DNA from: a virus
DNA: 23,591 bases
Virus record (IMG/VR): IMGVR_UViG_3300030107_001107
Coordinates: 1 to 23,591 of that record
Strand: one strand, 5' to 3'
Position numbers and translations under genes: made by a program. Within the stretch, counting starts at the first letter, position 1. The number at the start of each line of letters is the position of its first letter. This document shows positions 303 to 22,467 of the stretch, in pieces. Under the pieces are notes generated by a model, which did not search any database, was not told the DNA's origin, and saw only the letters and a program-made list of their open reading frames with translations.

Positions 303-2074
303 AGGAACTTTGGGAACCGTTACCTCCACAGTTAAGAGATAGTTTTCCAAATTTCACTTGTTATCTGTTGCGAGAGTTGGGGTTAGCAGATGCTCCAACA
401 AAGCAGCAGATTTCTGTGTGTAAATGGATGCAAGAAGGGCCTGATAAAAGTCTGACTGTTGCATTCAGGGGATTAGGGAAAAGTATTCTTGCGTCTTTTT
501 ATGCGTTGTGGAGGTTAAGAGTAGACCCGAATGAAAAGATTCTTGTTGTCTCTGCAACTGCAGTGAAGTCAACTGACTTCTCGTCTTTCATGCTGCGTTG
601 TATTGGTGAAATAGATATTCTCCAGTGTCTTATGCCTGGGACGGAAAATAGATTTTCAAATGTAGCTTTTGATGTGGGCCCCGCCCAGGTGGAACAGTCT
701 CCGTCTGTTCGTTCGATGGGAATTATGGGTCAGACAACAGGACAAAGATGTACTTGTGCAATTCTTGATGACGTAGAAACACTTGCTAATGTAATTACAC
801 AGTTAAAACAAGATAGAGTTGCACACGCTGTTGAAGAAATACAAAGTATCATAAAGCCAGAGGAGGGGCAGGTTTTACCCCGTAAAATTTTATATTTAGG
901 AACGCCACATACGGAGACAAGTATATATTTAAGGCTTGTGAGAGAAAGGAACTATGCGGCTAGATATTGGCCTGCGTTGTATCCCGACGAGCTTGATTGC
1001 TACGAGGGCAACCTCGATCCGACGATCGAAGAGGAGGTCATCGCGAACAGCAGCCTCGTGAAACAACCGACGGACCCAGAAAGATTTGGTCATGAGGATA
1101 TTCTCCAGAGACAAGCATCAATGACCAAAGCCAGCTTTGAACTTCAGTTCATGCTGAATACGAGATTGGCAACCTTAGATAAGTTCCCAATTCGTCTTGG
1201 TGATTTGATGGTTGTTGATTTAGATGGAACAGCCCTACCTGAAACATGTGTTTGGTCTAATCAGCCTGATGTCAGATTGCAAGAATTAGTTTGTGTCGGA
1301 CTTGGTGCAGATCGTTATTACCATCGTCCTATTTTTCAAAATGGTTGGATTCCGAAATCTGATACTTGGCGGTGTGTCTTAGCTATTGACCCTGCTGGTC
1401 GTGGTGCTGATGAATTGGCTTGGGCTGTTGTAGCAGAGTTGAATGGAAATATGTTTTTACTGGAATCAGGTGGTTCAACTCTTGGTTATGCAGATGAAGT
1501 TCTGCAATATCTCGCTAAGACAGCAAAGAAATGGGAAGTGAATTATGTAGTCGCTGAAAGTAATATGGGTGACGGAATGTTTACTGCTTTATTGAAGCCC
1601 CATTTGCTTCGCGAGTATCCCGTCACTATTGAAGAAGTTAGACACAATATTCGAAAAGAGCAACGGTTATGTGACACGCTCGGCCCATTAATTCAGCAGC
1701 ATCGTCTTATTGTTAATAGTCGCGTTATTAAACAAGATTATCGATTAACGGATGAAGATCCTGAGCATGGATACGCTCGGTCTTTATTTTTCCAGGCTTC
1801 AAGGTTGACAGCAGAAAAAGGTTGTTTATCTCACGATGACAGATTGGATGCTTTAGCTATTGCTTGTGGTTTCTTTGTCGATTCTGCAGCACAAGACCAG
1901 GAGAAAGCTAGGAAATCTCGTGCTGATCAATTATTTGAAGATGAATTAGAAGCTTGGATGGATGAAACAGTTGGATCGATTGATTCAATTGCTATGGGTT
2001 GGGGTGGTCGTAAATCTAGAGGGAAGGTTCATGGCGGGGTGAAGAGGATGCAGGTGGGCGTTTCAAGGGAATAA
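299..2074 (+). CDS. terL: terminase large subunit (T7 gp19-like DNA packaging ATPase/nuclease)
   Basis: This is the packaging motor, which hydrolyses ATP to pump DNA into the prohead through the portal and cuts the concatemer. At 591 residues it is close to T7 gp19 (586). The Walker A motif is FRGLGKS (about 56-62, Lys61). Walker B is ILDDVE (about 155-160, Asp157/Asp158). The C-terminal RNase H-like nuclease shows an Asp in AIDPAGRGADELAW (Asp364), an acidic residue in VAESNMGDG, and a late HDDRLDALA motif (Asp513, Asp514, Asp517). The order ATPase then nuclease is normal. The gene overlaps the small ORF upstream by ATGA. Its last 59 bases overlap a minus-strand gene. In T7 this gene lies after the tail fibre; here it precedes the portal module. 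A GC-rich patch lies at about 981-1080, between the two domains. Confidence 0.95.
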   Translation: MKELWEPLPPQLRDSFPNFTCYLLRELGLADAPTKQQISVCKWMQEGPDKSLTVAFRGLGKSILASFYALWRLRVDPNEKILVVSATAVKSTDFSSFMLRCIGEIDILQCLMPGTENRFSNVAFDVGPAQVEQSPSVRSMGIMGQTTGQRCTCAILDDVETLANVITQLKQDRVAHAVEEIQSIIKPEEGQVLPRKILYLGTPHTETSIYLRLVRERNYAARYWPALYPDELDCYEGNLDPTIEEEVIANSSLVKQPTDPERFGHEDILQRQASMTKASFELQFMLNTRLATLDKFPIRLGDLMVVDLDGTALPETCVWSNQPDVRLQELVCVGLGADRYYHRPIFQNGWIPKSDTWRCVLAIDPAGRGADELAWAVVAELNGNMFLLESGGSTLGYADEVLQYLAKTAKKWEVNYVVAESNMGDGMFTALLKPHLLREYPVTIEEVRHNIRKEQRLCDTLGPLIQQHRLIVNSRVIKQDYRLTDEDPEHGYARSLFFQASRLTAEKGCLSHDDRLDALAIACGFFVDSAAQDQEKARKSRADQLFEDELEAWMDETVGSIDSIAMGWGGRKSRGKVHGGVKRMQVGVSRE

Positions 2075-3960: not shown

Positions 3961-5595
3961 ATGCCAACTGCTGAACAACGGTATAGAGCTGGAGAGAGTG
4001 ATAGAAACTATCATCTCGAAAGAGCAAGAACGTCAGCTCGTCTGACAATTCCATATATTGTTCCTGCGAGTAATGATCCTGGAGCAAACAACAAAGACAC
4101 TTATTCAGTTCCTTGGAATGGAATCGGTGCTCGCGGTTGCTTGAACTTAGCGTCACGCATGTTGTTGGCATTGCTGCCCCCAACTCAGCAGTTCTTTAGG
4201 TTTTCGCTAGATGATGCAGAGTTAGTTAAGCAAGGTGTTCCTCCAGAGGAGAAGGCACAATTTGAGGAGGCGTTAAGCAAGATTGAGCGATTGGTTCTTC
4301 GAGAAATTGAAGCGAGTAATGATCGTGTGGTTTTTCATGAGGCGTTATTACATTTGGTCATTGCTGGTAATGCACTTTTATATGTTTCTCCTGAAGGATT
4401 AAGAGTTTTTCATCTCAATCGTTATGTGATGTTTAGAGATTCAATGGGTAATCCATTGGAATGTATTACATGCGAAGAGCTTCCTTATTACTCATTACCT
4501 GAAAAGGTTTTGGAAATGTTGCAGGAGGAGGAAGAAACTGAGTTAAAGGGAATACTTGATCCTTATGAAGGAACTTTGGATCGCAAAGAAGAAGAGAGAA
4601 CTTGCAAACTATATACCTACATCAAATGGAAAGGTGATCAAGTTACTTGGCATCAGGAGGTAAAAGGAAAAATTATTCCTGGTACTGAAGGCAGAGCACC
4701 CAAAGATGTTAGTCCTTGGCTTCCATTGAGGATGACCCACGTAGCAGGGCAACCTTACGGGGTTGGATATGTTGAATCTGCTGCCATTGCTGACCTTCAA
4801 ACAGTTGAAGCGTTATGTCAGGCAATCGCGGAAGGAGCTTTAGCGTCATCAAAAGTTTTATTTTTAGTTAAGCCATCAGGGGTTACGAAAGCAAATGACC
4901 TCGCAAAAGCACCGAATGGGGCATTTGTTACAGGAGATCCGAATGATGTGCTGGCATTACAAGTTCAGAAGAGTCAAGATCTATCTGTAGCGATGCAAGG
5001 TAAACAACAGATAGAAGCTAGGCTATCACAGGCTTTTATGCTCGCTGATCAACGTGATGCGGAAAGAGTTACAGCCGAAGAAGTTCGGTTACAGGCACTG
5101 CAAGTAGAGAACTCTTTGGGCAGTATCTATTCAATCCTTACGACTGAGTTTCAAGTTCCTTATGTAGCTAGAAAGCTGGATATTCTTCAACGAGAAGGGA
5201 AGGTTCCAAAGCTTCCGAAGGAATTAGTAAAAGTTGTAATGACAGTGGGTCTTGCAGCCGTTGGTCGTGGTAACGACTTAGAACAGCTAGTGCGGTTTAC
5301 TACGACCCTGGGGCAAACAATTGGCCCAGAAGGATTGGCTACTTACTTGAAGCCATCTGAATTGATCACCCGTCTCGCTTATTCAATGGGTATAGACACA
5401 CTTGGGTTGGTCAAGACAGAACAAGAGCTGCAAGCAGAACAGCAAGCAGCTCAACAAGCACAGCAGGCAGCACAGGAACAAGCGCAGCAAGAAGCCTTGT
5501 TGCGCTCAAAAATGGCTGACCCACAAAACCTAGCCAATGCTGCTGCAACAGCTCAGCAGATGCAAATGGCTGAAGAACAACCTACCGAACAGTAA
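3961..5595 (+). CDS. portal (head-tail connector) protein, T7 gp8-like
   Basis: A 544-residue protein, against 536 for T7 gp8. It forms the dodecameric ring at one capsid vertex through which DNA enters and leaves. The N-terminus (RYRAGESDRNYHLERARTSA, then a SVPWNGIGARGCLNLASRM segment) and the central HEALLHLVIAGNALLYV block are typical of T7-group connectors. The C-terminal 60 residues are Gln/Ala-rich (repeated QQAAQ), as in other connectors. It lies directly between the gp7.3-like gene and the scaffold gene, as in T7. No Shine-Dalgarno site stands out, and translation may be coupled to the gene upstream (TAAATTATG). Confidence 0.95.
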   Translation: MPTAEQRYRAGESDRNYHLERARTSARLTIPYIVPASNDPGANNKDTYSVPWNGIGARGCLNLASRMLLALLPPTQQFFRFSLDDAELVKQGVPPEEKAQFEEALSKIERLVLREIEASNDRVVFHEALLHLVIAGNALLYVSPEGLRVFHLNRYVMFRDSMGNPLECITCEELPYYSLPEKVLEMLQEEEETELKGILDPYEGTLDRKEEERTCKLYTYIKWKGDQVTWHQEVKGKIIPGTEGRAPKDVSPWLPLRMTHVAGQPYGVGYVESAAIADLQTVEALCQAIAEGALASSKVLFLVKPSGVTKANDLAKAPNGAFVTGDPNDVLALQVQKSQDLSVAMQGKQQIEARLSQAFMLADQRDAERVTAEEVRLQALQVENSLGSIYSILTTEFQVPYVARKLDILQREGKVPKLPKELVKVVMTVGLAAVGRGNDLEQLVRFTTTLGQTIGPEGLATYLKPSELITRLAYSMGIDTLGLVKTEQELQAEQQAAQQAQQAAQEQAQQEALLRSKMADPQNLANAAATAQQMQMAEEQPTEQ

Positions 5596-8405: not shown

Positions 8406-10951
8406 TGGCTTTAGTTTCTTATCCAATTCCTAATCTTTCTCAGGGAATTAGTCAACAACCTGATGCACAAAGAGATCCATCTCAAGGTGAGATTCAGGTC
8501 AATGGAATGTCTTCCATTATGGAGGGACTTAGAAAGAGAGATGCAAGTGAATTATTAGCAGAAGTCTCAACTTCTTCTTTTGGAGATTGTTTTATTCATA
8601 GTATTTTAAGAGATAACGTAGAGGAATATTTAGCAGTTGTAGCGAGTTCATCAATCAAAGTCTATGACTTAGAAGGGAACTCAATGTCATTTTCTCATGG
8701 AGTCAATGCTCTTAACTACATAAGTTCACTTGCAGATGCGAAGCAAAATATTAGAGCTGTAACGATTGCCGATTATACGTTCATATCAAATACGACAAAG
8801 GTTCCTGCGATGAAGGCGGCGACGGCTCCAGCAACGGCCCGTCCTACGGCACATGAAGCAATGGTTTGGGTGAGGGCAGCTTCGTACGGAAACGAGTACA
8901 AATTAACGGTTAATGGTGTTTCAGCAACTGTTACAACGGCTGTTGCTCCAGTCATATCAGGGACAGATGGGGATGGTAATCCTACTGTTACAGAGAATAG
9001 AATTAGTTCTGCTGATATTGCTGAGAATTTAAAAACAGCATTAGCTTCTGCTGGTTTAAGTGGGGTAACGATTACGAGATCTGGTTCAGTTCTTTGGCTT
9101 CAATCATCTAGTTCAATTACATTGGCTGCTAATGATGCAAGAGCCAATGCTGATATAACTGCAATTCTTTCTAAGGTTCAAACATTTACAGAGCTACCAA
9201 CCATTGCTCCGAGTGGTTATCAGATAGAGATTGAAGGTGATCCTGGTAATAATTTTGACGGTTATTACGTTGAGTTTGTACCGAAGAGTGGAACATTTGG
9301 CGAAGGTCTATGGGTGGAAACTGTTAGCCCAGGCGTTGAGTATGAAATAGATCAAGACAAGATGCCTCATATTTTAGTAAGGCTTCCAGATAATAGTTTT
9401 TTCTTTGGACCTGCGGATGGATATGTTCTTACTGGTACTACGAATGGAGTTGCCTGGGAAGTTAAGATGCCGACTTGGGGGCAAAGGGCAGCAGGTGATT
9501 ATCAAACTGCTCCAGATCCAAGTTTCATAGGCCATGCCATTAACGATATTTTCATTTATAAAAATCGTCTTGGATTCTTAGCTGATGAGAATGTGATTCT
9601 TAGTCGAGTAAGAGAGTTCTTTAATTTCTGGCCTGAGACAGTTACAACGATTCTTGATTCTGATCCGATTGATGTAGTTGCTTCTAATAACAAAGTTTCA
9701 GTTCTTAGATATGCAGTGCCATATCAGGATGAGTTAATTCTTTTCAGTTCTCAATATCAATTTAGATTTAATGCAGCAGAAACGGTTTTAACTCCAGCTA
9801 CAGCTCAGATCACTGTGTTGACGCAGTTTGAAACAGATGTAGCTGTTAGGCCCCAACAATCAGGGGGAGGAATAGTTTTCGCTCAAAATAACGGTGATTG
9901 GGCTCAGTTTCGTGAGTTTAGTGTGCGAGGTGCTGGTACTGCTTTAACGGCTGATGCTGCAGATTTAACTGGATATGTATCTGCTTATGTCCCTAGTGGT
10001 TTATTCAAATTAACGGTCAATGATACGAGTAATGCCATATTTGGTATCAGCTCAAAGACAGGCCATAAGAATCGGATTTACGTTTATAAATATTTTGTTC
10101 GAAACACTGGACAAGGAGTTGAAAGGGCTCAATCGAGTTGGAGTCATTGGGAACTTAGTGGAGCTGATGAAATCCTTCAGGTTTTATGCGTAAGGGAGAC
10201 TCTTTATCTTTTAGTCAAGTATGGAAGCAAGGTTTATTTAGAGAAGATCCCAGTCATGGATCGTCTTAGTGAGCCTGTCGCAGGAGCCCCATATCCTTTC
10301 CTTTTAGATCGTCGTGTCTCAACTACTACTGCAACTCCTGCAGGGGTGAGAGTTTCAGCAGGTAGTTATGACGCAACAACAAAGAAAACAACATGGACAT
10401 TGCCTTATACGATTAAATCGAGAACAGAAGCGTGGTCAGGTTTCGACACAAGTGCAAATGGAGGTGTCCTTCTCGGATTTGCGACCAGTGGTAACACCAT
10501 TATTGGCAATGGTGATTGGTCTGGTTCTCCAGTTTGGTTTGGTGAGTCATATAACTTCCGATATAGATTTACCCGTTTCAAACTTTATAAAGAGATAGGA
10601 GGAGGAAAAGCAGCAGCGAACGTAGAAAGGACACAGGTTCGTAATGCGAAATTGCGTTATCACGAGACACATTATTTTGAAATACATGTGTTTCCTGAAG
10701 GAAGGGATACAGGTAAATATAAATTTGACGGAACAATTCTTGGATCTAGAAATTCGCTGATAGGAACTGCATTACCAGACGGATGGGATTCTGATGATGA
10801 AAGATTTTATGAGGGTGTATTTACTTTTCCAATCATGAGTCGAGGTGAACGATGTATGGTTGAAATTCATAACGATACTCCTCACCCCTGTAAGTTTTCT
10901 ACTTGTGAGTGGGTTGCATTAATTACAAGTAAGGCGAGGTCATTAAGATGA
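8405..10951 (+). CDS. tail tubular protein B, T7 gp12-like nozzle
   Basis: An 848-residue protein (T7 gp12 is 794) that forms the tail nozzle. The start MALVSYPIPNLSQGISQQPD is typical ('-slkgGiSqQPd'), as are VNGMSSIMEGLRKR and VTIADYTFISN. Central blocks FIGHAINDIFIYKNRLGFLADENVILSR and EFFNFWPETVTTILDSDPIDV are near-diagnostic of the family. A domain at about 155-290 is rich in Thr, Ser and Ala and partly accounts for the extra length. The DNA coding the start of that domain (about 8801-8900) is unusually GC-rich. The gene is followed by an ATGA overlap with the gp13-like gene. Confidence 0.95.
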   Translation: MALVSYPIPNLSQGISQQPDAQRDPSQGEIQVNGMSSIMEGLRKRDASELLAEVSTSSFGDCFIHSILRDNVEEYLAVVASSSIKVYDLEGNSMSFSHGVNALNYISSLADAKQNIRAVTIADYTFISNTTKVPAMKAATAPATARPTAHEAMVWVRAASYGNEYKLTVNGVSATVTTAVAPVISGTDGDGNPTVTENRISSADIAENLKTALASAGLSGVTITRSGSVLWLQSSSSITLAANDARANADITAILSKVQTFTELPTIAPSGYQIEIEGDPGNNFDGYYVEFVPKSGTFGEGLWVETVSPGVEYEIDQDKMPHILVRLPDNSFFFGPADGYVLTGTTNGVAWEVKMPTWGQRAAGDYQTAPDPSFIGHAINDIFIYKNRLGFLADENVILSRVREFFNFWPETVTTILDSDPIDVVASNNKVSVLRYAVPYQDELILFSSQYQFRFNAAETVLTPATAQITVLTQFETDVAVRPQQSGGGIVFAQNNGDWAQFREFSVRGAGTALTADAADLTGYVSAYVPSGLFKLTVNDTSNAIFGISSKTGHKNRIYVYKYFVRNTGQGVERAQSSWSHWELSGADEILQVLCVRETLYLLVKYGSKVYLEKIPVMDRLSEPVAGAPYPFLLDRRVSTTTATPAGVRVSAGSYDATTKKTTWTLPYTIKSRTEAWSGFDTSANGGVLLGFATSGNTIIGNGDWSGSPVWFGESYNFRYRFTRFKLYKEIGGGKAAANVERTQVRNAKLRYHETHYFEIHVFPEGRDTGKYKFDGTILGSRNSLIGTALPDGWDSDDERFYEGVFTFPIMSRGERCMVEIHNDTPHPCKFSTCEWVALITSKARSLR

Positions 10952-11406
10952 AGTTTATTAAACAGGAAGATGTTACTGGTGACATGGTTCTGGATATAGG
11001 ATTCAATTTAAGAGAAAGTGATGAAATTGAGGTTCAATTAAGTCATGGAATGTCTGGTCTAAACGCTTGTATGGACAGCTATTGTCATAGTTCTATGTTT
11101 CAGATTTTTGCTGGTGATGATGGAACGCCTGTTGGTATAACTGGAATGTGGCATAACTCAATTTGGTTATTAGCAACTGATGGATTAACTGCTACAAAAA
11201 GTCATCGTTGGCAATTATGCACTTTAGCTAGACAATGGGTAGATCTCTGCGTGGCCGAAGTGGGTGAAACTATTGGAAATTACGCTTATTCTGAGAACAA
11301 GAAATCTCTTAAGTGGTTGAAACATTTAGGATTCACGGTTGGAGAACCAGAACCTTACGGAGTTAAGGGTGCATTGTTCTGTCCGTTCTGGAGGAGTCCA
11401 TCATGA
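10948..11406 (+). CDS. gp13-like protein with acetyltransferase (GNAT) fold
   Basis: A 152-residue protein at the T7 gene 13 position (T7 gp13 is 138). The central VGITGMWHNSIWLLATDGL and the C-terminal NYAYSENKKSLKWLKHLGF resemble the GNAT strand and the 'N..s..fl..lGF' end of the fold that gp13-like proteins share. A complete acetyl-CoA loop (Q/RxxGxG/A) is not evident, so catalysis is doubtful. In T7, gp13 is needed for proper virion assembly of the internal core. The gene shares ATGA with both its neighbours, which suggests tight coupling. Confidence 0.82.
   Translation: MKFIKQEDVTGDMVLDIGFNLRESDEIEVQLSHGMSGLNACMDSYCHSSMFQIFAGDDGTPVGITGMWHNSIWLLATDGLTATKSHRWQLCTLARQWVDLCVAEVGETIGNYAYSENKKSLKWLKHLGFTVGEPEPYGVKGALFCPFWRSPS
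11390..11396 (+). promoter_or_regulatory. ribosome-binding site for the gp14-like gene
   Basis: GGAGGAG lies 6 bases before ATG 11403, inside the end of the gp13-like gene. It supports 11403 over the in-frame ATG two codons later. Confidence 0.7.
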
Positions 11407-12226: not shown

Positions 12227-14752
12227 ATGGCTGATCCCAAACGTCTACCAGAGGGCCAAGTTAATCCAGGTGCAAAACCTGTATCGGCCTTTGTTAATCC
12301 AGGTTCTATTCAGGTTGCTGCACCAACTAAATTTCCTGGTGTTCCTCAACCAAAAGGAGTTAGAGCTGTTTCGACTGGTGGAACAACTTATGTTCAGGGA
12401 TATAACCAAGCGAAACAACTAGCAGAGGCTTTGGTTCCTTTTACGAATCAGGTAATGCAAACTGCTACGACAGCAGGTTTGAAATATGTCAGTTATAAGA
12501 TTGAAGAAGGAGAAAGGAAAGCTTGGGAGGCAGAAGCACAGGCAACTGCAGCACAGATGAAAGTTGATGAAGCAACTGAAGTAGCAGAGAAGACAGCAGC
12601 ACAAGCAAATAGAAAGTTATCGAAGAAAGATCCTCAAGCTGCATTATTAGCTAACGAGTTAAATCCTTATACAAAAATAGGGATACAAAGAGGAAGAGCA
12701 AAGATTGCGGCGGCTGAAGTTCCTTTAGGCATGAGGGCTTTTGTTAGTCAAAGTGCTGACAAGATTGATTTCAATGATGGTACAAATGGTTTAAAAGGAT
12801 TACAGGGAATAAGAGCACAATATGTAAATAGTGTTTTTCAAAAACATGGTTTAACAAAGAATGGTCCAGGTGTAGATAAATATTTAATGCCTGCTATTGA
12901 AAAGACTTCAGAGAAGATTGCTAATGATATTTTTTCGAGATCTATAAAATTTAATGATGAAGTTAAACCTGGATTATTAGCTACAAAAATAAAGTTAGCA
13001 GTTAAGCAGATCAATGGAGCTGGTGTTTTTGAGTATGGAGAGAATGAGTATATAAAAGAGAAGATGGATGAGAAGGATTATAAAGCGGCTGCAAGACAAT
13101 ATTTAGCATCAATTATTCGAGAAGATGTTGCTGATGCGATGTTTAATAAAGGTGGCGAAGTAAGAATGGGAGAAGCTTATAAATTGTTAATGGGGGATAC
13201 AGAATTTAATACTGAGGCTAATAGAAATCTTTTAGATTCAGTTGATTCTTCTTCTCAAATAGAGTTTGGTGGTAAGAAAATTACATTAAATATAGGCCAG
13301 AGATATGGAGGTTCAGGTATTACTAAAGCTGATTTTGAAGCTAAAGCTGTTAAACAAAATACAGCCGCCGCGAAATTAGCAGGAGAAGATTTTCAGGTTA
13401 AATTAGATCAAGCTTTAAATAATATTGGAGAGGATGAGACTGTAGAACAGGCGGTCAGTAGAGTTTATGCTGAATACGTTGAATCTCTTGGTGGAGAAGA
13501 AAATATTAATTCTTTTGTCTTGAATAAGTTAAAAGAAGTAGTATCAAAAAACCAGCGTAGTGCTAATGAAGGTGGATTAATTATTGAAGGTTTAAACCCA
13601 GAAGAAAGACTTAATATTAATAAATTAATTAATAACTTAAATGGAAAAGATTTATTAGAAAGGTCTTCTGAAATTAGAGATAGAATATTTAAAATTGCAA
13701 GTGGAATGAGTGCTGATGATGCTGATAAATATACAAGAAGTCAACTTAAATTATTAGGTGACAAGGTAAGTTCTGCAGTTCAATTGAGTAGATATTCAGA
13801 CACTATTGATGAATTAATAGAAATGAGAACTGGTTATTTCTTAAAAAGTATTTATGGAAGTAGTAGAAATGCTCCCCTTGATTGGCCTACTTCAGAAGGT
13901 CGTTTGCAAGTTCGATTTAAAGAAATAGTTATAGAAGCTATTCAAGGTGAAATGATTAACAAAGGAAGAGAAATTAGTACGGTAGAAGCACAGAAAGTTG
14001 GAAATGAAGCTATTGCTAGTTATATAAAAAATAATGCTTCTGATTTCTCTGATTTGTTTCCAGGTGCTTCTCAAGAAAAGTTAGATACATTGAACTTAGG
14101 ATTAACTGAAACAGAATCAACAGATCCTACGAAGAGGAAAGAAATAGTTATTCCTGAAGGAGAGAAAGAGGGTAAGAAAGTAATCAGATTATATGAAGTT
14201 GATCAGCTTGATTCTTTCCCTAATCGTGGACCAGTTCTTAGACGCTACCGTGACAGACCTATTCTTCCTCTTGAGGCATTAAGAGAAGAGATTTCAAATA
14301 TTATTAGCGGTGGTGAAATTCCTTTGTCTTTAAAGAAAGCAAGAGTGGAGGCTCAGGCCCCAGATCTATTTGATTTCTTGATGAAGCAAGTTGATCAATA
14401 TCCTAATTACGATCTCCAGAAGGACTTTAGTTTAGATGACCTTGAGAAGTTAAAAACAGAATTAGTGTCTATGGGTAGTGCAGAAAATAGCTTGGTTGCG
14501 ACTCGTTTATTAGAAGACACTCATCCTAATCTTGCTTCTAGAAATGAATGGTTAGACCCCTTTAAAGAGGTTCAGACAGCAGGGATAAGATTGTCTGGTG
14601 ATCGGTATCTTTATAATTATGAGATAAAAATTATTAAAGATGGTTTCAATAGAGATAAAGCAGCAGGTAAAAGCTTGGATCATTATTTCAAATTTTATCC
14701 TGAGCTTTTTAAAGGAGTTGATGCTGGTAATCCGTTTAAAAGTGTGGGCTAA
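12227..14752 (+). CDS. internal virion protein, T7 gp15-like
   Basis: An 841-residue protein (T7 gp15 is 747) that is mostly helical. The first 80 residues are Pro/Gly-rich and disordered. A basic/acidic coiled coil follows (about 80-130, KIEEGERKAWEAEAQATAA). The NELNPYTKIGIQRGRAKIAA and MRAFVSQSADKIDFND segments fit the family's conserved N-terminal region. In T7 gp15 forms the periplasmic tube of the ejection apparatus with gp16. The call rests on position, size and style rather than an enzymatic motif. The gene starts five bases after the gp14-like stop. No clear ribosome site is seen (AAATTTCATG). Confidence 0.85.
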   Translation: MADPKRLPEGQVNPGAKPVSAFVNPGSIQVAAPTKFPGVPQPKGVRAVSTGGTTYVQGYNQAKQLAEALVPFTNQVMQTATTAGLKYVSYKIEEGERKAWEAEAQATAAQMKVDEATEVAEKTAAQANRKLSKKDPQAALLANELNPYTKIGIQRGRAKIAAAEVPLGMRAFVSQSADKIDFNDGTNGLKGLQGIRAQYVNSVFQKHGLTKNGPGVDKYLMPAIEKTSEKIANDIFSRSIKFNDEVKPGLLATKIKLAVKQINGAGVFEYGENEYIKEKMDEKDYKAAARQYLASIIREDVADAMFNKGGEVRMGEAYKLLMGDTEFNTEANRNLLDSVDSSSQIEFGGKKITLNIGQRYGGSGITKADFEAKAVKQNTAAAKLAGEDFQVKLDQALNNIGEDETVEQAVSRVYAEYVESLGGEENINSFVLNKLKEVVSKNQRSANEGGLIIEGLNPEERLNINKLINNLNGKDLLERSSEIRDRIFKIASGMSADDADKYTRSQLKLLGDKVSSAVQLSRYSDTIDELIEMRTGYFLKSIYGSSRNAPLDWPTSEGRLQVRFKEIVIEAIQGEMINKGREISTVEAQKVGNEAIASYIKNNASDFSDLFPGASQEKLDTLNLGLTETESTDPTKRKEIVIPEGEKEGKKVIRLYEVDQLDSFPNRGPVLRRYRDRPILPLEALREEISNIISGGEIPLSLKKARVEAQAPDLFDFLMKQVDQYPNYDLQKDFSLDDLEKLKTELVSMGSAENSLVATRLLEDTHPNLASRNEWLDPFKEVQTAGIRLSGDRYLYNYEIKIIKDGFNRDKAAGKSLDHYFKFYPELFKGVDAGNPFKSVG

Positions 14753-14784
14753 TATCTACAGGGGTGGAAAAGTCCTGCATAATA

Positions 14785-14815
14785 GAGGAGACTGACTATG
14801 GATAAAGAGTTCTGA
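14785..14815 (+). promoter_or_regulatory. ribosome site plus five-codon minicistron before the gp16-position gene
   Basis: GAGGAG (14785-14790) is followed after 7 bases by ATG 14798, which opens ATG GAT AAA GAG TTC TGA (MDKEF, stop at 14813-14815). Three bases later comes ATG 14819 of the 1363-residue gene, in the same frame. The only good ribosome site thus serves the minicistron, and the large gene would be reached by reinitiation or read-through. Alternatively the TGA is a recent mutation or a sequencing error, and the true start is 14798. Confidence 0.55.
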
Positions 14816-14818
14816 GAA

Positions 14819-17800
14819 ATGACATTACGACCTTTAACTTCAGAAGAAGCAACTCCTAGTAACGTATTTGAGGTTGAAACTGAAGAGAAAGAAGAGGAGA
14901 AAGGTTTCTGGGGTCATGTCGGTGACTGGTTCAGTAACGTAGGGAAAGTCACTGAAAACTTTAATAAGGGATATACATACGATCCTCAAGGATCATTAGA
15001 CGCTTCCTATGGAATGGCTGCATTTGGAGGTCCAGTAATGCATATCAATCGATATAAAGACCGTGACGGTAAATCTGTTTCATCTATTCCCAGTCAGACA
15101 CAAGCATATAAAGCTGCGACTGTTGATGTTGTTCACGACACGATATTAAATGCCACGGCTCTCGTTTTAGAGTCACCTAGAGTTTTTAGTCCTCTCAACA
15201 AAGTACTTCCTAAAGATAGAAATATTGATCCAAAAGAAACTGCAATTGGAAAATTGACGGTTGGAGCAAGAGAGAAATTAACAACATTAATGGGAGCCAA
15301 GCAAGATTGGGAAATGTCCCTGGAGGAGAAACAACTTCTGAATGATCCTTGGGCCAGTATTTCTGCCAATATTCTTGCAGCAACTGCAACTGGTGGTGCA
15401 TCTGCAAAATGGAAACTTGGTTCCAAATTGGGGATGGTTCCTGGTTATGACTATTTGCCTAAAGGTGCTCAAGGAATATTTCGTTGGGCTGCATTTCTTG
15501 CTGCAGAGGAACATTTAGCTTCGTTTGGAGAAGGAAGAGATAAGCAAGGAAGTTTATTTGATCTTTCACCAAACACTCCATTTTCTATTCAGCCAGAAGA
15601 TACATATATGCAAGCTTGGAGAAAAGCTGCATTAGGAAATTCTTTTACAGTGGGAGGTTTAGGTACTGGATTAAGAGCTGGTGCTGAAATTCCTAATATC
15701 CTGCGTTATACGTTTAACAAGCAACGTATTAAGGAAATAAATAGTGCAAAAGATTGGTTATTTAAAAATAGATTCCAGACAGAAGATGGGTCGAGTTTTG
15801 TTAAAACAGCAGAGCCAGAGGTAAAAGTTGATAAGGCAGTTGAAGTAGATGATGAAGCTGCTTTTCAAGAGTGGTTGAAGAATCCACCAGAGGAATACAG
15901 AGAAATATTTAAAGAAATTGAAAAATTACAAGGCTCAACTGATGAAGCTTTTGCTAGGCAAAGAGAGCTTTTTGATCGAATGAAGAGTGGATTAGATGAG
16001 ATGGATACCCTTTTAAAAGAAGGAAGTCAATACGATGAGTTATCTCCCATAGATCAAAAGAAAGTTGATCTAGAAGTGGGGATGATGAGAGATAAAGCAA
16101 AGCCTAAAAATGTTAATGAGGCGATAGAAAATCTTATTGATAAACCAGAGGCAGATGTTGTTGTTAGAGCTATTGATGAATTAGATGATGTTAGTGCAGA
16201 AAAGATTGCTAATTCAGAAGGTAAGGTTCTTGATCAACTTGAGCTGGAAATAGAAAATCAAACCAAGGCTGTTGATGATCCATTAGATGAAGCAAGAAGA
16301 GACATAACAATGGAAGGAATGCCTGAAAGTAATTTATATTTTGGAGGGCCAGAAGATCTTGAGACAGAAGTAAATAAGATAAAAAGAATGACGGATGAGA
16401 GATTAACTGCTGAAATTGAAAGTAATAAAAAGTTTGAATTAACAGAAAAAAAATTAAAGAATAGACAGAAGAAACTAGATGATTTTAAGCCTAAAAGTGA
16501 AAGATATAATCAGATACATAAAGATTTAGATCTGGGATTTGGTGCTGGTCAGGATGGAAATAGAAAATTAACTGCTGCAGAAGATCTTGAAATGGAGCGA
16601 ATATCTTTTGAGGCCAGAGATATAGTGATTGAATCTGAGAATTTGGGAATTAATAAGGCACAAAACGAAGTTTATAAGCACAATTTTTATCAAGAACTTT
16701 TAAAGGAACAAGCAAAAAGACTTGAGCCCAAACTTAATTTTGGAGAAGCAGCATTTATTCCTGATGATTTGCTTTTAGGCAAGACAACTTATGGAATGGC
16801 AGAACTTGAATTTGGTTCTCGTATTGATCAAGCAGCTTGGCTATTAAGACCAGGAAGAAAAAGATACCCTCCTGTCGTAAAACAAATTATTGAGTTAGCA
16901 CAGAAGAATGGAATTGATATAAATGAATTTAGAGCACATGGTACGAAAGTACATGAATCAATTAAGGCTCAAGTTAAAGATAAAACAGGTAGTGCTAAAG
17001 CAAGTCCAGACAATACAGCAGGTTTAACTTTTAAGGTCCAGGACCAGAAGTTTGGTCGTGTTGTTGCTACTGAGAAAGCTCCTGATCCTGTTGTCTCTTA
17101 TGTAGATCAATGGGAGTCAATGTCTTTCAGAGATCTGAAGAAATTAGCTAGTCCTAAAACAAATAAAGAATTATTTGATTTAATTAAAAATCGAACAGGT
17201 AAAGACTTTAGGCAGTTCACTAGGAAAGATGTTATTGCAGGGTTACAGGAGTTAAGAGAAAAAGGTATTACCGTTCGACCTACAAATACAAGACCAAAGT
17301 TAAAAGCTCAAAGAGAAGAAACTAAGAAGTTAATTGTTCAAAAAGCAATAGATCAAGGAGAAGTAAGACCATCATCTACAAAAGTTTCAGAACCAGATGA
17401 TCTACCAATTGATCTTGATGATCCTAAATTAGATGCACAAAGTTTACTTGCTCAAGAATATAATTTAGCTAAGAAATTTGAAGCAGAAGATGCAGCAAAA
17501 CAAGCAGCATTAAAGGAAGCAGATCGAGATGAAATTGGTTATTACGATATGTCGTTAGAAGATAAGAAGCAGCATGGTCTTCTTGATGGATGGGAAAGAC
17601 AAACAGAAGCTGAGATGAGGATAGAAGATTTAAACAGAGAAATTGAATATATAAATGATGATCTAAATATTGCAGAAAGTCTGAATAATGAAAGATTATC
17701 TCGTGGTTTAGGTTTTAGCGAAGAGATAGATCAAGGTATAGAAACTTTAAATTTAAAGAAACAAGAATTAGAAATTGAATTAGCGAGATTGAAAGGAGAT

Positions 17801-18910
17801 GATTCAGTTGAATTTAAGTCATTAAAGAACATTAAACAGGAAGTAAGGATTATGAATTTTGATCCTCACATGGCTCGTGTAATGAAGAATAGAGAGGATT
17901 TATCACAGATGCTTGGAGATTTAATCTGGAGGATTGGTGGTGATGATACTAAATTTAAGTTTAAAGATGATGTGAAGATTATTAAGGAAGCACCTGCTGA
18001 ATGGGGAGGAAAAACTAACTTTGAAGCTGGTAAAGAAGCTGGTTTTTATGATACTTTAAATGACCATATAACTATTTATGAAGTAACTAATGGATTGAAG
18101 ATTAGTGAAATTCAAGAGAGAATGGCAACCGCAGTACATGAACCTTTCCATCGTATTCAGTTTGGATATATGACATTAGAAGAGATGAAGATTTTCGATA
18201 CAATTGATGGTCAGAAACGAATTAAATTGTTTAGTCAATTAAACCCAAATATCAAAACAGAGTTCAGTCAGAAGGCAACAGCGACAATAGAAAAGATGAC
18301 AGTAGGTTTTCAGGAATACTCAATGTTGAGATTAAGTGGAATGGACCCTTTTGAGTTTGCTGTTACAAATAAAATAGGAACATGGTTAGATGCTAATTTC
18401 CCTAGACCTGATGGCAACTCATGGCAATTAGGTAAGTTTCATAATACTTTGACCACGATTGCAACGGTATGGGATCGAATATTTGAAGTTGTTAGAGCGT
18501 TTGGTAATTATGCAAAAGGTAGAGGATTTAAGACAGTAGATAGTATTTATGAGGACGCATTTTCTGGATTAATAGCAAAGAAAAGAAAGTTTAATAGTGC
18601 AGTAAATATTATTTATGCTGAGATGGAATCTGCAAGATTTGTTGATAAGATTAATAAGAGAATAGATCAGTTGGAAATTGCTCAAGGTGATCCCAAAGCA
18701 CTAAAAAGAGTTAATGAGTTATATCAGAAAGATGTTTCTGAATTTGAAGCATTTAAAGCTAGAACTGATGATTTAGTTGCAAGGGCTAATGTTCTCGAAA
18801 GGTGGAAATCAGATAACGAAGGATTCTTGAATTTCGTAGATGATGCGATAGCGAAAAAGAAAAAACGAATTGACGATTTAAAAACTTTAGCCCTACAAGG
18901 AGGTTGCTAA
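14819..18910 (+). CDS. giant internal virion (ejection) protein at gp16 position, with HEXXH metallopeptidase-like domain
   Basis: A 1363-residue protein, close in length to T7 gp16 (1318), directly after the gp15-like gene. Domains that can be seen: an N-terminal acidic stretch, then an amphipathic GFWGHVGDWFSNVG segment (about 29-42); an Ala/Gly-rich region (about 150-320); a very acidic helical or coiled-coil middle (about 340-650); a small 'FRDLKKLA...FTRKDVIAGLQEL' module (about 765-815) resembling SAP/Rho-N helix-turn-helix folds (weak); another coiled coil (about 930-1000); and a C-terminal AVHEPFHRIQFGYM (His1107, Glu1108, His1111), an HEXXH zinc-binding motif, with a possible third ligand Glu1166 in VGFQEYSM. 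No lysozyme or SLT catalytic motif was recognised. The start at 14819 depends on the TGA at 14813-14815 being real. Confidence 0.82.
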   Translation: MTLRPLTSEEATPSNVFEVETEEKEEEKGFWGHVGDWFSNVGKVTENFNKGYTYDPQGSLDASYGMAAFGGPVMHINRYKDRDGKSVSSIPSQTQAYKAATVDVVHDTILNATALVLESPRVFSPLNKVLPKDRNIDPKETAIGKLTVGAREKLTTLMGAKQDWEMSLEEKQLLNDPWASISANILAATATGGASAKWKLGSKLGMVPGYDYLPKGAQGIFRWAAFLAAEEHLASFGEGRDKQGSLFDLSPNTPFSIQPEDTYMQAWRKAALGNSFTVGGLGTGLRAGAEIPNILRYTFNKQRIKEINSAKDWLFKNRFQTEDGSSFVKTAEPEVKVDKAVEVDDEAAFQEWLKNPPEEYREIFKEIEKLQGSTDEAFARQRELFDRMKSGLDEMDTLLKEGSQYDELSPIDQKKVDLEVGMMRDKAKPKNVNEAIENLIDKPEADVVVRAIDELDDVSAEKIANSEGKVLDQLELEIENQTKAVDDPLDEARRDITMEGMPESNLYFGGPEDLETEVNKIKRMTDERLTAEIESNKKFELTEKKLKNRQKKLDDFKPKSERYNQIHKDLDLGFGAGQDGNRKLTAAEDLEMERISFEARDIVIESENLGINKAQNEVYKHNFYQELLKEQAKRLEPKLNFGEAAFIPDDLLLGKTTYGMAELEFGSRIDQAAWLLRPGRKRYPPVVKQIIELAQKNGIDINEFRAHGTKVHESIKAQVKDKTGSAKASPDNTAGLTFKVQDQKFGRVVATEKAPDPVVSYVDQWESMSFRDLKKLASPKTNKELFDLIKNRTGKDFRQFTRKDVIAGLQELREKGITVRPTNTRPKLKAQREETKKLIVQKAIDQGEVRPSSTKVSEPDDLPIDLDDPKLDAQSLLAQEYNLAKKFEAEDAAKQAALKEADRDEIGYYDMSLEDKKQHGLLDGWERQTEAEMRIEDLNREIEYINDDLNIAESLNNERLSRGLGFSEEIDQGIETLNLKKQELEIELARLKGDDSVEFKSLKNIKQEVRIMNFDPHMARVMKNREDLSQMLGDLIWRIGGDDTKFKFKDDVKIIKEAPAEWGGKTNFEAGKEAGFYDTLNDHITIYEVTNGLKISEIQERMATAVHEPFHRIQFGYMTLEEMKIFDTIDGQKRIKLFSQLNPNIKTEFSQKATATIEKMTVGFQEYSMLRLSGMDPFEFAVTNKIGTWLDANFPRPDGNSWQLGKFHNTLTTIATVWDRIFEVVRAFGNYAKGRGFKTVDSIYEDAFSGLIAKKRKFNSAVNIIYAEMESARFVDKINKRIDQLEIAQGDPKALKRVNELYQKDVSEFEAFKARTDDLVARANVLERWKSDNEGFLNFVDDAIAKKKKRIDDLKTLALQGGC
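18897..18903 (+). promoter_or_regulatory. ribosome-binding site deciding the start at 18913
   Basis: AAGGAGG ends directly against a TTG (18904) that would extend the ORF by three codons, but is 9 bases from ATG 18913. The ATG is therefore the better start. The site lies inside the last codons of the 1363-residue gene. Confidence 0.8.
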
Positions 18911-18912
18911 CC

Positions 18913-21900
18913 ATGTCTAATTGCGACGACACTTTCCAGGAAATTCAAAAGCTTCACGGTGAAATCGAGAAGCTTGATTCATCAAGAACTTTCCTTAAAA
19001 AACTATCTTCTATCGAGAATAGAAAACCTAACACTTTTAAAGTTAGAGGTGTTGATGGAAATCAATTAGAGATTGATTTTGATCAATGGTGGTATCGAAT
19101 GGCTAATGATCCTGAAGGGGTTGATGCTTGGGCTGAACGTGCAGTGGGTCAAAGATCAAAGCCTGCAGGTGCAGAAGGAATGTTTGAAAATATTGATCAG
19201 TTAGTAAGAAATTTAGGAGAAGTTAATGCACAAGAAATGCTTGCAATGCTTCAAAGACAGACAGGAGATTGGCAATTTTATAATGAGCGAGACTTTAATC
19301 TTTACACAAGAAAAACACCAGATCATAAATTAAAAGCATTACTAGAAGAAGGGTTTAAAGAAGCTGGTGTTACTTTAGAAAAAGGCTCGTTAGATGCTGC
19401 AATTGCACAAGAAGTTGGACCATTTTTAGGCATCTTAAATAATCAGACCAAACTGCAAATCTACGCAGATCACATGTCTAAAGTGCTCAGATCACGAATA
19501 ATAGAAATAGCAAATGAAATCAGATCAAAAGGTAGTGTTCCTAGATCAACCAAGCAGGATCTTTTAAAGACCTGGGCCTCTGCTATCTTTGCTCATCGTT
19601 CTCGCAGTATTGCTAAAAGAAGGTGGGGCCAAATGGGTCTTAATCTTCAGTTCTTAGGTAAACAAAATCCTGCTGAAATTGATAGCGTTTATAGAACAAC
19701 AGGAAAGGCTGCAGTAGAAGAAGCAGAACAAATGGCAGATGAAGTTCTTACTGCAACAACTGATGATTTTATGAAGGAAGGATCGTTGATAACAAAAGTA
19801 ATTGAGGCAATAGATAAAGGTCCGAAAGGATTAGATGAATTAGATGAGATTCAGAGGGCAATTAGACTTGATGGTGTTGATCCAAATATGCCTTTAGAAA
19901 ATGGATGGGAAAGTGCATGGAAACGGACAAGAAATGCTGCATGGAAAGACAATATTTTCTTTGCAATTAGTTCTCAACTTAGAAGTAATTGGCTTTCTCA
20001 GAAAATAGTTTATGCAGTGGAAGGAATGAAGTCGTTTTACGGAACGACAATGGAATTAACTGATTGGCCATTTAAAAAATACACTCAACGAAATTTAGAT
20101 TTACCTGAGATAGCAATACAAGGTGATTTATTTAAACCTTACGGAACAGAAGCAACAAGAAATTATTTCAAAGCAATGTGGGATTCAGGAAGAATGCACA
20201 TTAAAAGTCATTTTGCAGCCGAATCTCAAATGAGGTCTGTATTTACAGAATTTCCAGAGATAATGGATCAACATTTCTTTAAAGGTGATACTCCTTTTGC
20301 TGGAGCAGTCGACAAGATAAATAATCCGCGAGGAATGATGACTGTTGATGAGCAATATAAAACTGCTGAGAAAACTTTAAATGAACCAATGGAATGGTTT
20401 TCTGTTGATTATCTTCCTATGCAAATAAGAAACAAAGTTAGTTGGGCTTATAAAGTTTTTGCTAATCGTTTAATTGAGAAAGAAACAGGTGTTCGTTTTC
20501 CTGTCTTATCTGCTTTGCAGATGTTCGCTGCTGTTGATCATCGTGCAGGTAAAAGAGCATTTTTAAGTCAACGTCACATGGATATGTCCTTGCAAGCTGC
20601 CAAGGCAAATCCTCATTTAGGACCAAAAGAATGGGCTGAAATTGCTAGTGAACAGTTAGAAGATCAGCTATATCAAGCAACCCCTAGTAAGCAAAATATC
20701 TCTGATTATAGAAAACAATATAAATTAGGAGATGAAATTAGTGATGATGAAATTGAAGCAGTAATAACGCTGGATAAAGTTGGGGCTCCTGTATTAGCAG
20801 AACCAGGACAGGTTAAAGCGTATGAAAAATCTTTTGCAATGCGAATGCAAAATAAATTAGAAGGTCCAGTGGTGTTTGGAAAAGATCTTGGTACTGGTCA
20901 ATTTGTAGACGAAATAATGGGAAGGATCAGGTCTACTGATTATGGAGATGCGTTAGTGCCTGTTTGGAGAAGTGCTTCAGCTCAAACAATGTATGACATT
21001 GCTTTAGGTAATCCAGCTTTCTTAGCAGGCAAGCTTGTTAATGCTATTTATCACGGAGCACAAGGGAAACTAACAACCAAGATGATGGTTGATGCTCATT
21101 CTCACGCATTGACTTTTGCTTCATTAGCAGCTTTGTGGTACACCTTGTCAGATTCGGGAAACATCGTAGGCAATGGGCCTCCTCCAGGAACTCCTGCTGC
21201 TAGGAATTGGAGAGAGAGATTAAGGAATGAAGGGAAGGTTCCAAATAGTGTTCTTGGTATTCCTTGGAATATGGGCGGTGTTCCTTTATTGAATACTTTA
21301 TTTTTGTATGAGGATCTTATTCAATATATGAAAGATGGACATGCCAATAAATACGACAAACAAACTATTCACGAGGCTTTATTAGTTGTAGGAACTGGTC
21401 ATTTAATGAGGATGCCTGGATTTAAGCAATTCCAAATGATTTCTGAAGCTATAGCCGATCAAAGTCCAAGCAAAATGAAAAGAGCATTTTCATTTTTAGC
21501 AATGGCACAAGCTCCTGTTATTGGACTTGGAGCTGGAGTTGGTAGAACTTTGGAAGGAATGACAGGCACAAGTCGTAGTGATCTTTATGCACCAACAGGA
21601 AATAAAACTCCTATGACAAAGAAATTAGAAGAACAGGTTTGGGATCCTCAAGATGTAGATCATCCTATTAGTAAATTGGAGAATTGGTTAAGGACTCTTG
21701 TTTATGATGCCTCTCCTTTGATTGCAGCAGCAACAGGAGCACCAAAGAAAGAATTTACTTGGTTAGGTCGTGACGTTATTAGACCTGATAATCATGCAGG
21801 GGAATGGTTGATTGGTCAGCCTGGTTTATGGGGTAAAGAAGGTACTTATAAGGTTGAAAAGGTTCTTGATCAACTTGGTCTATTAGAAGTTCCTGAAGAA

Positions 21901-22467
21901 ATAACAAATCAAAGAGTTGGTGATATTCCTATAACTGTTGATCTTGTCAAGGAGCTTAATTATGAAATTGGTCATATCAAAGGTGATAAAGATTTTGCTT
22001 ATTCAGGTGATCCTGCTGCAAAACTTTCTGGTAAAGATAAATATGGATTTGAGGTGAAACTTTTAAGTTTTACTGGTAAGAGTCTTGATGGGCTTGAGAT
22101 CATCAACGAATCAGAAACGATTGATATTCTTGGATTATTAAATGCAGCAGTTGCAGGAAGAACAGTAAGAGAATCAATGAATTATGTAATAGAAAGTCCC
22201 ACTTGGCAAAAGCTGGAAACAAATGAAGAAGGTCGATTCTCTATTAACAATAGAGATTTAACTCGTGAAGAAATTCGTAACTTACCAGGACCAAAGATCT
22301 TAAAAATATTGAAGGAGTTTTATACAGATAAAGCTAAGAATAAAGTTCTTAGTTCTGAACATGATCACGCTAAGAGTTATAGAGAAAGACTGAAAGCAAT
22401 GGTTGAGTCTCAGTCAATTGATCAGATGCAGAAAGATCTAGCTATTGCAGAAAGTGCCTTTTACTAG
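18913..22467 (+). CDS. second giant ejection-type protein, 1184 aa
   Basis: The protein begins MSNCDDTFQEIQKLHGEIEKL and is largely helical. I recognise no enzymatic motif. Near residues 727-745 (SHALTFASLAALWYTL) and 860-885 (AQAPVIGLGAGVG) are hydrophobic helices that could insert in a membrane. The C-terminus is charged and helical. The place between the gp16-position gene and the tail fibre suggests either a C-terminal half of a split gp16-type protein or an additional internal virion protein. Length, Trp-rich N-terminal region (FDQWWYRMAND) and late hydrophobic segments resemble the large, multi-domain 'polyvalent' proteins of phages, which is only an inference. The start is ATG 18913, set by AAGGAGG. 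The stop of the upstream gene lies two bases before this ATG. Confidence 0.75.
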   Translation: MSNCDDTFQEIQKLHGEIEKLDSSRTFLKKLSSIENRKPNTFKVRGVDGNQLEIDFDQWWYRMANDPEGVDAWAERAVGQRSKPAGAEGMFENIDQLVRNLGEVNAQEMLAMLQRQTGDWQFYNERDFNLYTRKTPDHKLKALLEEGFKEAGVTLEKGSLDAAIAQEVGPFLGILNNQTKLQIYADHMSKVLRSRIIEIANEIRSKGSVPRSTKQDLLKTWASAIFAHRSRSIAKRRWGQMGLNLQFLGKQNPAEIDSVYRTTGKAAVEEAEQMADEVLTATTDDFMKEGSLITKVIEAIDKGPKGLDELDEIQRAIRLDGVDPNMPLENGWESAWKRTRNAAWKDNIFFAISSQLRSNWLSQKIVYAVEGMKSFYGTTMELTDWPFKKYTQRNLDLPEIAIQGDLFKPYGTEATRNYFKAMWDSGRMHIKSHFAAESQMRSVFTEFPEIMDQHFFKGDTPFAGAVDKINNPRGMMTVDEQYKTAEKTLNEPMEWFSVDYLPMQIRNKVSWAYKVFANRLIEKETGVRFPVLSALQMFAAVDHRAGKRAFLSQRHMDMSLQAAKANPHLGPKEWAEIASEQLEDQLYQATPSKQNISDYRKQYKLGDEISDDEIEAVITLDKVGAPVLAEPGQVKAYEKSFAMRMQNKLEGPVVFGKDLGTGQFVDEIMGRIRSTDYGDALVPVWRSASAQTMYDIALGNPAFLAGKLVNAIYHGAQGKLTTKMMVDAHSHALTFASLAALWYTLSDSGNIVGNGPPPGTPAARNWRERLRNEGKVPNSVLGIPWNMGGVPLLNTLFLYEDLIQYMKDGHANKYDKQTIHEALLVVGTGHLMRMPGFKQFQMISEAIADQSPSKMKRAFSFLAMAQAPVIGLGAGVGRTLEGMTGTSRSDLYAPTGNKTPMTKKLEEQVWDPQDVDHPISKLENWLRTLVYDASPLIAAATGAPKKEFTWLGRDVIRPDNHAGEWLIGQPGLWGKEGTYKVEKVLDQLGLLEVPEEITNQRVGDIPITVDLVKELNYEIGHIKGDKDFAYSGDPAAKLSGKDKYGFEVKLLSFTGKSLDGLEIINESETIDILGLLNAAVAGRTVRESMNYVIESPTWQKLETNEEGRFSINNRDLTREEIRNLPGPKILKILKEFYTDKAKNKVLSSEHDHAKSYRERLKAMVESQSIDQMQKDLAIAESAFY

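What the first reader, a model, noticed from the sequence alone, without database searches (positions are those of the whole stretch)
18083..18580. HEXXH metallopeptidase-like domain in the gp16-position ejection protein
Residues 1102-1120 contain AVHEPFHRIQ, an HEXXH motif, with Glu1166 in VGFQEYSM 59 residues later as a plausible third ligand, and then a 'GRGFKTVDSIYEDAFSG' segment (about 1236-1252) like those near metallopeptidases in multi-domain phage polyvalent proteins. T7 gp16 instead carries an N-terminal transglycosylase. A zinc protease ejected with DNA could cleave virion partners, envelope proteins or host defences.
Basis: partly seen in the sequence, partly recalled or inferred. 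Interest (0 to 1): 0.65.

Follow-up and report, generated by a model that had tools for sequence, protein, structure and literature searches.

The report
Zincin domain in phage ejection-block protein
A giant protein that a marine T7-like virus probably packs and injects with its DNA carries a real, conserved zinc-protease domain of a kind already known from other phage 'polyvalent' proteins; it is an optional add-on in this virus group and its target is unknown.

Summary
The HEXXH at residues 1107-1111 (DNA 18137-18151) of the 1363-aa ORF 14819-18910 is real and marks a zincin (gluzincin-type) domain, about residues 1028-1268. In relatives at 16-27% identity, H1107, E1108, H1111 and a glutamate are invariant. 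Loci found without using HEXXH all keep HEXXH and this Glu. The AlphaFold core has the zincin order; its enzyme matches (ArdC, lethal factor, IrrE, minigluzincins) are zincins but weak. Profile comparison links it to the HEXXH domain of N4 virion RNA polymerase. The same domain occurs in two classic polyvalent proteins (InPase/LPD38; DarB-like). No Pfam, NCBIfam or PHROG model covers it. The protein is the first of two large genes in the gp16 position; the second (18913-22467) is the conserved one. Three close relatives keep the second gene and a short first gene without the zincin, so the domain is an accessory module. It most likely acts after delivery, cutting its own polypeptide or host proteins; activity and substrate are untested. 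New member of a known kind.

The parts
14819..18910 (+). 1363-aa mosaic ejection-block protein ('gp16a'), first gene in the gp16 position
   Evidence: domain order differs from relatives
17900..18622 (+). zincin (gluzincin-type) domain plus following element, residues ~1028-1268
18137..18151 (+). HEXXH (HEPFH), residues 1107-1111
   Evidence: invariant H, E, H
18290..18292 (+). Glu1158, predicted third metal ligand (E-K-M-T = gluzincin Exx(A,F,T,S,G) pattern)
   Evidence: invariant; near the start of the second helix in the model
18314..18316 (+).
18449..18607 (+). conserved helix plus GRGF...V..[IL][FY]E.A..G element after the zincin core
16712..17068 (+). module residues ~632-750 (YG..F.SDLD.AAY...HG..V), found at other positions in relatives and in P-SCSP2
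18913..22467 (+). 1184-aa conserved downstream protein ('gp16b'); start ATG 18913 with SD AAGGAGG at 18897-18903
12227..14752 (+). 841-aa gp15-position protein

Best explanation
The feature is a catalytically plausible gluzincin-type zincin domain (His1107, His1111, Glu1158 binding a divalent metal; Glu1108 as general base) carried as an optional module near the C-terminus of a multi-domain protein encoded in the ejection-protein block of a T7-like marine phage. Shown: motif, conservation, predicted topology, kinship with polyvalent-protein metallopeptidases, presence/absence in close relatives. Inferred: the protein is packaged and delivered with the DNA, and the domain is active after delivery. 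The single most likely use is cutting its own polypeptide to free accessory modules from the rest (as proposed for P1 DdrB), about 0.4; cutting host proteins is nearly as likely, about 0.3. The confidence given here is for the identity as an accessory zincin domain, not for the substrate.
For: H1107, E1108, H1111 and E1158 invariant at 16-27% identity; 4 further lineages found through the downstream gene and one through the C-terminal element keep HEXXH and the Glu. Model: helix, three strands, HEXXH helix, Glu helix, the layout given for polyvalent MPTases in PMC5512222. The Glu fits the gluzincin 'Exx(A,F,T,S,G)' motif quoted in PMC7213743. Structural neighbours ArdC Z 7.2, LF Z 6.9, IrrE Z 6.5 over 92 residues, selecase/abylysin in Foldseek. 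hhalign to the N4 vRNAP HEXXH family scores 33.7 against at most 20.4 in 100 shuffles and 22.3 in unrelated windows. Same domain in InPase/LPD38 and DarB-like polyvalent proteins. Accessory: S37C6, S-SRP02 and S38C3 keep gp16b but have a 941-1016 aa gp16a without it. In fused relatives the zincin sits between variable N-terminal modules and a C-terminal part of about 1000-1400 aa.
Against: No protease assay and no proteomics; neither protein is shown to be in the virion. Foldseek E-values to solved structures are all above 0.1 and VIA Z-scores are middling, tied with coiled-coil rows. The N4 preprint PMC12633501 reports no evidence of degradation of vRNAP, and PMC5512222 says N4 vRNAP is packaged uncut. 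ArdC works in conjugation without its metalloprotease activity. In the window the C-terminal part is already a separate gene, so that junction needs no cutting.
Confidence: 0.8

Rival explanations
1. Host-directed effector: the delivered zincin cleaves one or a few host (or resident-element) proteins early in infection, as IrrE/PprI-like gluzincins cleave a repressor.
For: Accessory presence/absence among close relatives, typical of host-interaction modules; IrrE among the structural neighbours; company of DarB-like antirestriction modules in L062.
Against: No substrate or host known; position next to the large C-terminal part in fused relatives fits self-processing as well.
Confidence: 0.3
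2. Self-processing protease: the domain cuts the polyvalent protein that carries it, before packaging or after delivery (the substrate version favoured in the best explanation).
For: PMC5512222 cites processing of P1 DdrB, which has a C-terminal MPTase; the zincin lies at module boundaries in fused relatives; relatives without it also have the shortest gp16a, without the extra modules.
Against: N4 vRNAP is packaged uncut and no degradation was seen; the zincin is kept where the C-terminal part is a separate gene.
Confidence: 0.4
3. Non-proteolytic use: a metal-binding or folding module needed for packaging or passage, with the HEXXH kept for structure.
For: The N4 region that includes the MPTase is needed for encapsidation (PMC5512222); ArdC E229A still works in conjugation (PMC7213743).
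Against: Invariance of the general-base Glu1108 as well as the metal ligands favours catalysis; absence from three relatives argues against a general packaging need.
Confidence: 0.15
4. Chance HEXXH in a helical region, not a zincin.
For: No significant Pfam, NCBIfam or PHROG match; weak Foldseek E-values.
Against: Invariant H/E/H/E in lineages found independently of HEXXH; zincin topology.
Confidence: 0.03

Closest known systems
Polyvalent-protein zincin-like MPTases of phages and plasmids (Iyer et al. 2017, PMC5512222)
   Same: HEXXH helix plus Glu helix, three-strand core, in giant mosaic proteins; the same domain family lies in InPase/LPD38 and DarB-like polyvalent proteins
   Different: Not matched by PF18818 or any other curated model tried; sits in a T7-like ejection block next to a separate conserved gp16b gene
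C1 domain of coliphage N4 virion RNA polymerase (PMC12633501)
   Same: HEXXH zincin-like domain in a giant ejected protein, followed by a long C-terminal part; profile match well above shuffles
   Different: No RNA polymerase here; C-terminal parts not detectably related
ArdC of plasmid R388 (C-terminal metalloprotease domain)
   Same: Gluzincin HEXXH and Exx(A/T) motifs; structural neighbour Z 7.2
   Different: No ArdC-N ssDNA-binding domain detected; phage ejection-block context
Orphan 2571-aa protein of MPP-C cyanophage P-SCSP1 (and the 1484-aa protein of Nohivirus S31C1)
   Same: Carry the same domain with HESFH / HESWH and the Glu
   Different: P-SCSP1 form is fused to a C-terminal ~1200-aa part; published as an unannotatable putative internal virion protein (PMC9860041)
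T7 gp16
   Same: Genome position after the gp15-position gene, before the tail fibre
   Different: No detectable similarity; T7 gp16 has an N-terminal transglycosylase (established knowledge), none detected here

Membership tests
Zincin / gluzincin fold | HEXXH on an active-site helix, conserved in relatives | tested here: met
Zincin / gluzincin fold | third ligand Glu in Exx(A,F,T,S,G) on the next helix | tested here: met
   Glu1158 (EKMT), invariant; motif definition from PMC7213743
Zincin / gluzincin fold | helix, three-stranded sheet, HEXXH helix, Glu helix in that order | tested here: met
   AlphaFold model, order of elements as required, pLDDT mostly 70-93 in the core blocks
Zincin / gluzincin fold | significant structural match to solved zincins | tested here: inconclusive
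   ArdC, LF, IrrE, minigluzincins are the recurring enzyme matches but E >0.1 and Z 6-7
Zincin / gluzincin fold | metal binding and peptidase activity | not testable with these tools
   needs biochemistry
Polyvalent-protein MPTase (Iyer 2017) | zincin MPTase inside a large multi-domain phage/plasmid protein with shuffled partner domains | tested here: met
   domain order shuffled between window and S31C1; same domain with InPase, LPD38, DarB-like modules
Polyvalent-protein MPTase (Iyer 2017) | match to the one Pfam model PF18818 MPTase-PolyVal (not a defining feature of the whole group, which has 12 clades) | tested here: inconclusive
   no match at E 10
Polyvalent-protein MPTase (Iyer 2017) | delivery into the host at infection | not testable with these tools
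   only genome position supports it
T7 gp16 | sequence similarity or N-terminal transglycosylase | tested here: inconclusive
   no Pfam/PHROG match for either gp16-position gene; structure of gp16b not predictable

The most novel reading that the evidence does not exclude
T7-like marine phages swap in and out, between close relatives, a virion-delivered zinc protease inserted in the ejection apparatus, which cleaves a specific host protein at the first step of infection; natural pairs with and without it would make the role of polyvalent-protein metallopeptidases directly testable.
Probability: 0.25. Interest if true: 0.7.

Novelty: new member of a known kind. Interest (0 to 1): 0.45.

Why it matters
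It gives a first functional label to large orphan proteins of marine T7-like phages, including the MPP-C cyanophages infecting Prochlorococcus, whose internal virion proteins were published as unannotatable. It ties T7-like ejection blocks to the polyvalent-protein metallopeptidases and to the HEXXH domain of N4 virion RNA polymerase, whose role is unsolved. Because close relatives have or lack the module, the question of what these proteases do can be asked with natural pairs.

Tried and rejected
Glu1166 as ligand: rejected, not conserved and not in an Exx(A,F,T,S,G) context. Simple gene split of a fused 2571-aa protein: not supported, since the C-terminal half of the fused form is not detectably related to gp16b (hhalign probability <6%), nor to N4 C2 or the LPD38 end. 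Single-sequence N4 C1 comparison gave nothing; a family alignment was needed. Profile search of PDB sequences: no zincin except a sub-threshold FtsH. gp16b structure: pLDDT 39, unusable, not searched. The conserved C-terminal 'GGC' of gp16a is best explained as the Shine-Dalgarno of gp16b, not as a peptide motif. Intergenic 14753-14818 as an RNA structure: no better than shuffles. The 9-sequence alignment of the C-terminal element was too divergent for a collection scan; four sequences worked. HEXXH conservation is partly selected by the search pattern, so for it I rely. P-SCSP2 was checked and has no HEXXH and no match to the domain.

Full report
What is there. The window is a fragment of a T7-like (Autographiviridae-type) phage: terminase 299-2074, portal 3961-5595, scaffold, capsid, tail tube proteins, gp13-like internal virion protein 10948-11406, then 272-, 841-, 1363- and 1184-aa proteins, then a tail fibre. 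Its portal is closest to uncultured marine phages S37C6 (77%) and S31C1 (72%) and to Synechococcus phage S-SRP02 (59%).

Conservation. The protein finds relatives in marine phages: S31C1, the 2571-aa protein of Prochlorococcus phages P-SCSP1, and 34 viral contigs. In 13 sequences under 85% mutual identity, and in the 23-row alignment A2 (16-25% identity to the window for all rows but one), the invariant residues include H1107, E1108, H1111 and E1158. Some of these loci were found with an HEXXH-containing pattern, so I repeated the test through the downstream gene. Every locus with the upstream gene present keeps HEXXH (HEPFH, HESWH, HEAWH, HESVH, HEAIH), and a locus found through the C-terminal element keeps it too. 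The Glu is present in all of these. Glu1166 is not conserved.

Fold. AlphaFold with A2 gives mean pLDDT 74.6. Core elements are a helix (residues 1025-1040), strands at 1045-1049, 1075-1078 and 1083-1087, the HEXXH helix 1095-1117, and a helix 1156-1172 that begins two residues before Glu1158. This is the layout Iyer et al. give for polyvalent-protein MPTases (PMC5512222). The Glu lies in E-K-M-T, fitting the gluzincin 'Exx(A,F,T,S,G)' rule (PMC7213743). Matches to solved structures are weak, but the metalloenzymes among them are all zincins: ArdC (Z 7.2), lethal factor catalytic domain (Z 6.9), IrrE (Z 6.5, 92 residues, 3.3 A), selecase and abylysin. Long-helix matches of similar Z come from the C-terminal helices of the model. 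I could not measure distances in the model.

Kinship. Pfam, NCBIfam and PHROGs do not recognise the domain and PF18818 does not match the window. Against an 11-member family of N4-type vRNAP HEXXH domains, hhalign gives probability 44-70% and score 33.7, versus at most 20.4 in 100 column shuffles, 13.0 reversed, and at most 22.3 for 22 unrelated windows. The same domain occurs in two alphaproteobacterial giant proteins: one with InPase, phosphoribosyltransferase and LPD38, one with DarB-like methylase/helicase modules. These are the architectures described for polyvalent proteins.

Mosaic and accessory nature. Window and S31C1 proteins share modules in different order. Most relatives carry a ~430-aa stretch with a module related to PHROG 21 (portal C-terminus) that the window lineage lacks. 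The next gene (true start probably ATG 18913) is collinear and conserved. S37C6, S-SRP02 and S38C3, close relatives by portal, have this second gene (E 6e-32 to 1e-13) and a 941-1016 aa first gene with weak matches to window 389-477 and 772-871, but no HEXXH and no zincin match. So the zincin is optional in this phage group.

How it probably works. Genome position implies an internal virion/ejection protein (PMC9860041 infers the same for the P-SCSP1 protein); this is inference. I favour action after delivery, cutting its own polypeptide (0.4) or host proteins (0.3). Precedents point both ways: P1 DdrB is processed, N4 vRNAP is packaged whole, and ArdC does not need protease activity for its conjugation role.

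Verdict. It is a new, uncatalogued member of the polyvalent-protein zincin family in T7-like marine phages, of moderate interest.

Noticed in passing
window 14753-14818: Intergenic stretch before the 1363-aa gene is nearly identical in two relatives (L008, L009) although the coding DNA after it has diverged in L009; it holds an SD and a 5-codon mini-ORF (MDKEF*, MDKGI* in L009) just before the start ATG. No RNA structure above shuffles and no second copy in the window.
   Followed up: partly
window 18897-18915: The Shine-Dalgarno (AAGGAGG) of the downstream gene overlaps the last codons (GGC) of the 1363-aa protein; conserved in five lineages. The listed TTG start of the next ORF is probably wrong; ATG 18913 fits.
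   Followed up: yes
L014:6976-8253 (residues ~518-943); P-SCSP1c protein 451-763: A module matching the C-terminal ~300 columns of PHROG 21 ('portal protein') lies inside the relatives' ejection-block protein and is cleanly missing in the window lineage.
   Followed up: partly
window 16712-17068: Module with YG..F.SDLD.AAY...HG..V pattern sits at a different position in S31C1-type relatives and also occurs in P-SCSP2's 1596-aa protein, which has no zincin.
   Followed up: partly
L007:8383-16098 (P-SCSP1c): Fused 2340-3019 aa forms have a C-terminal ~1200-aa part that is conserved among themselves but not detectably related to the window's separate downstream protein.
   Followed up: partly
window 18143-18145: The window lineage has Pro at the first X of HEXXH (HEPFH) where the other 12 sequences of the 13-row set have Ser and a few further relatives have Ala.
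   Followed up: no
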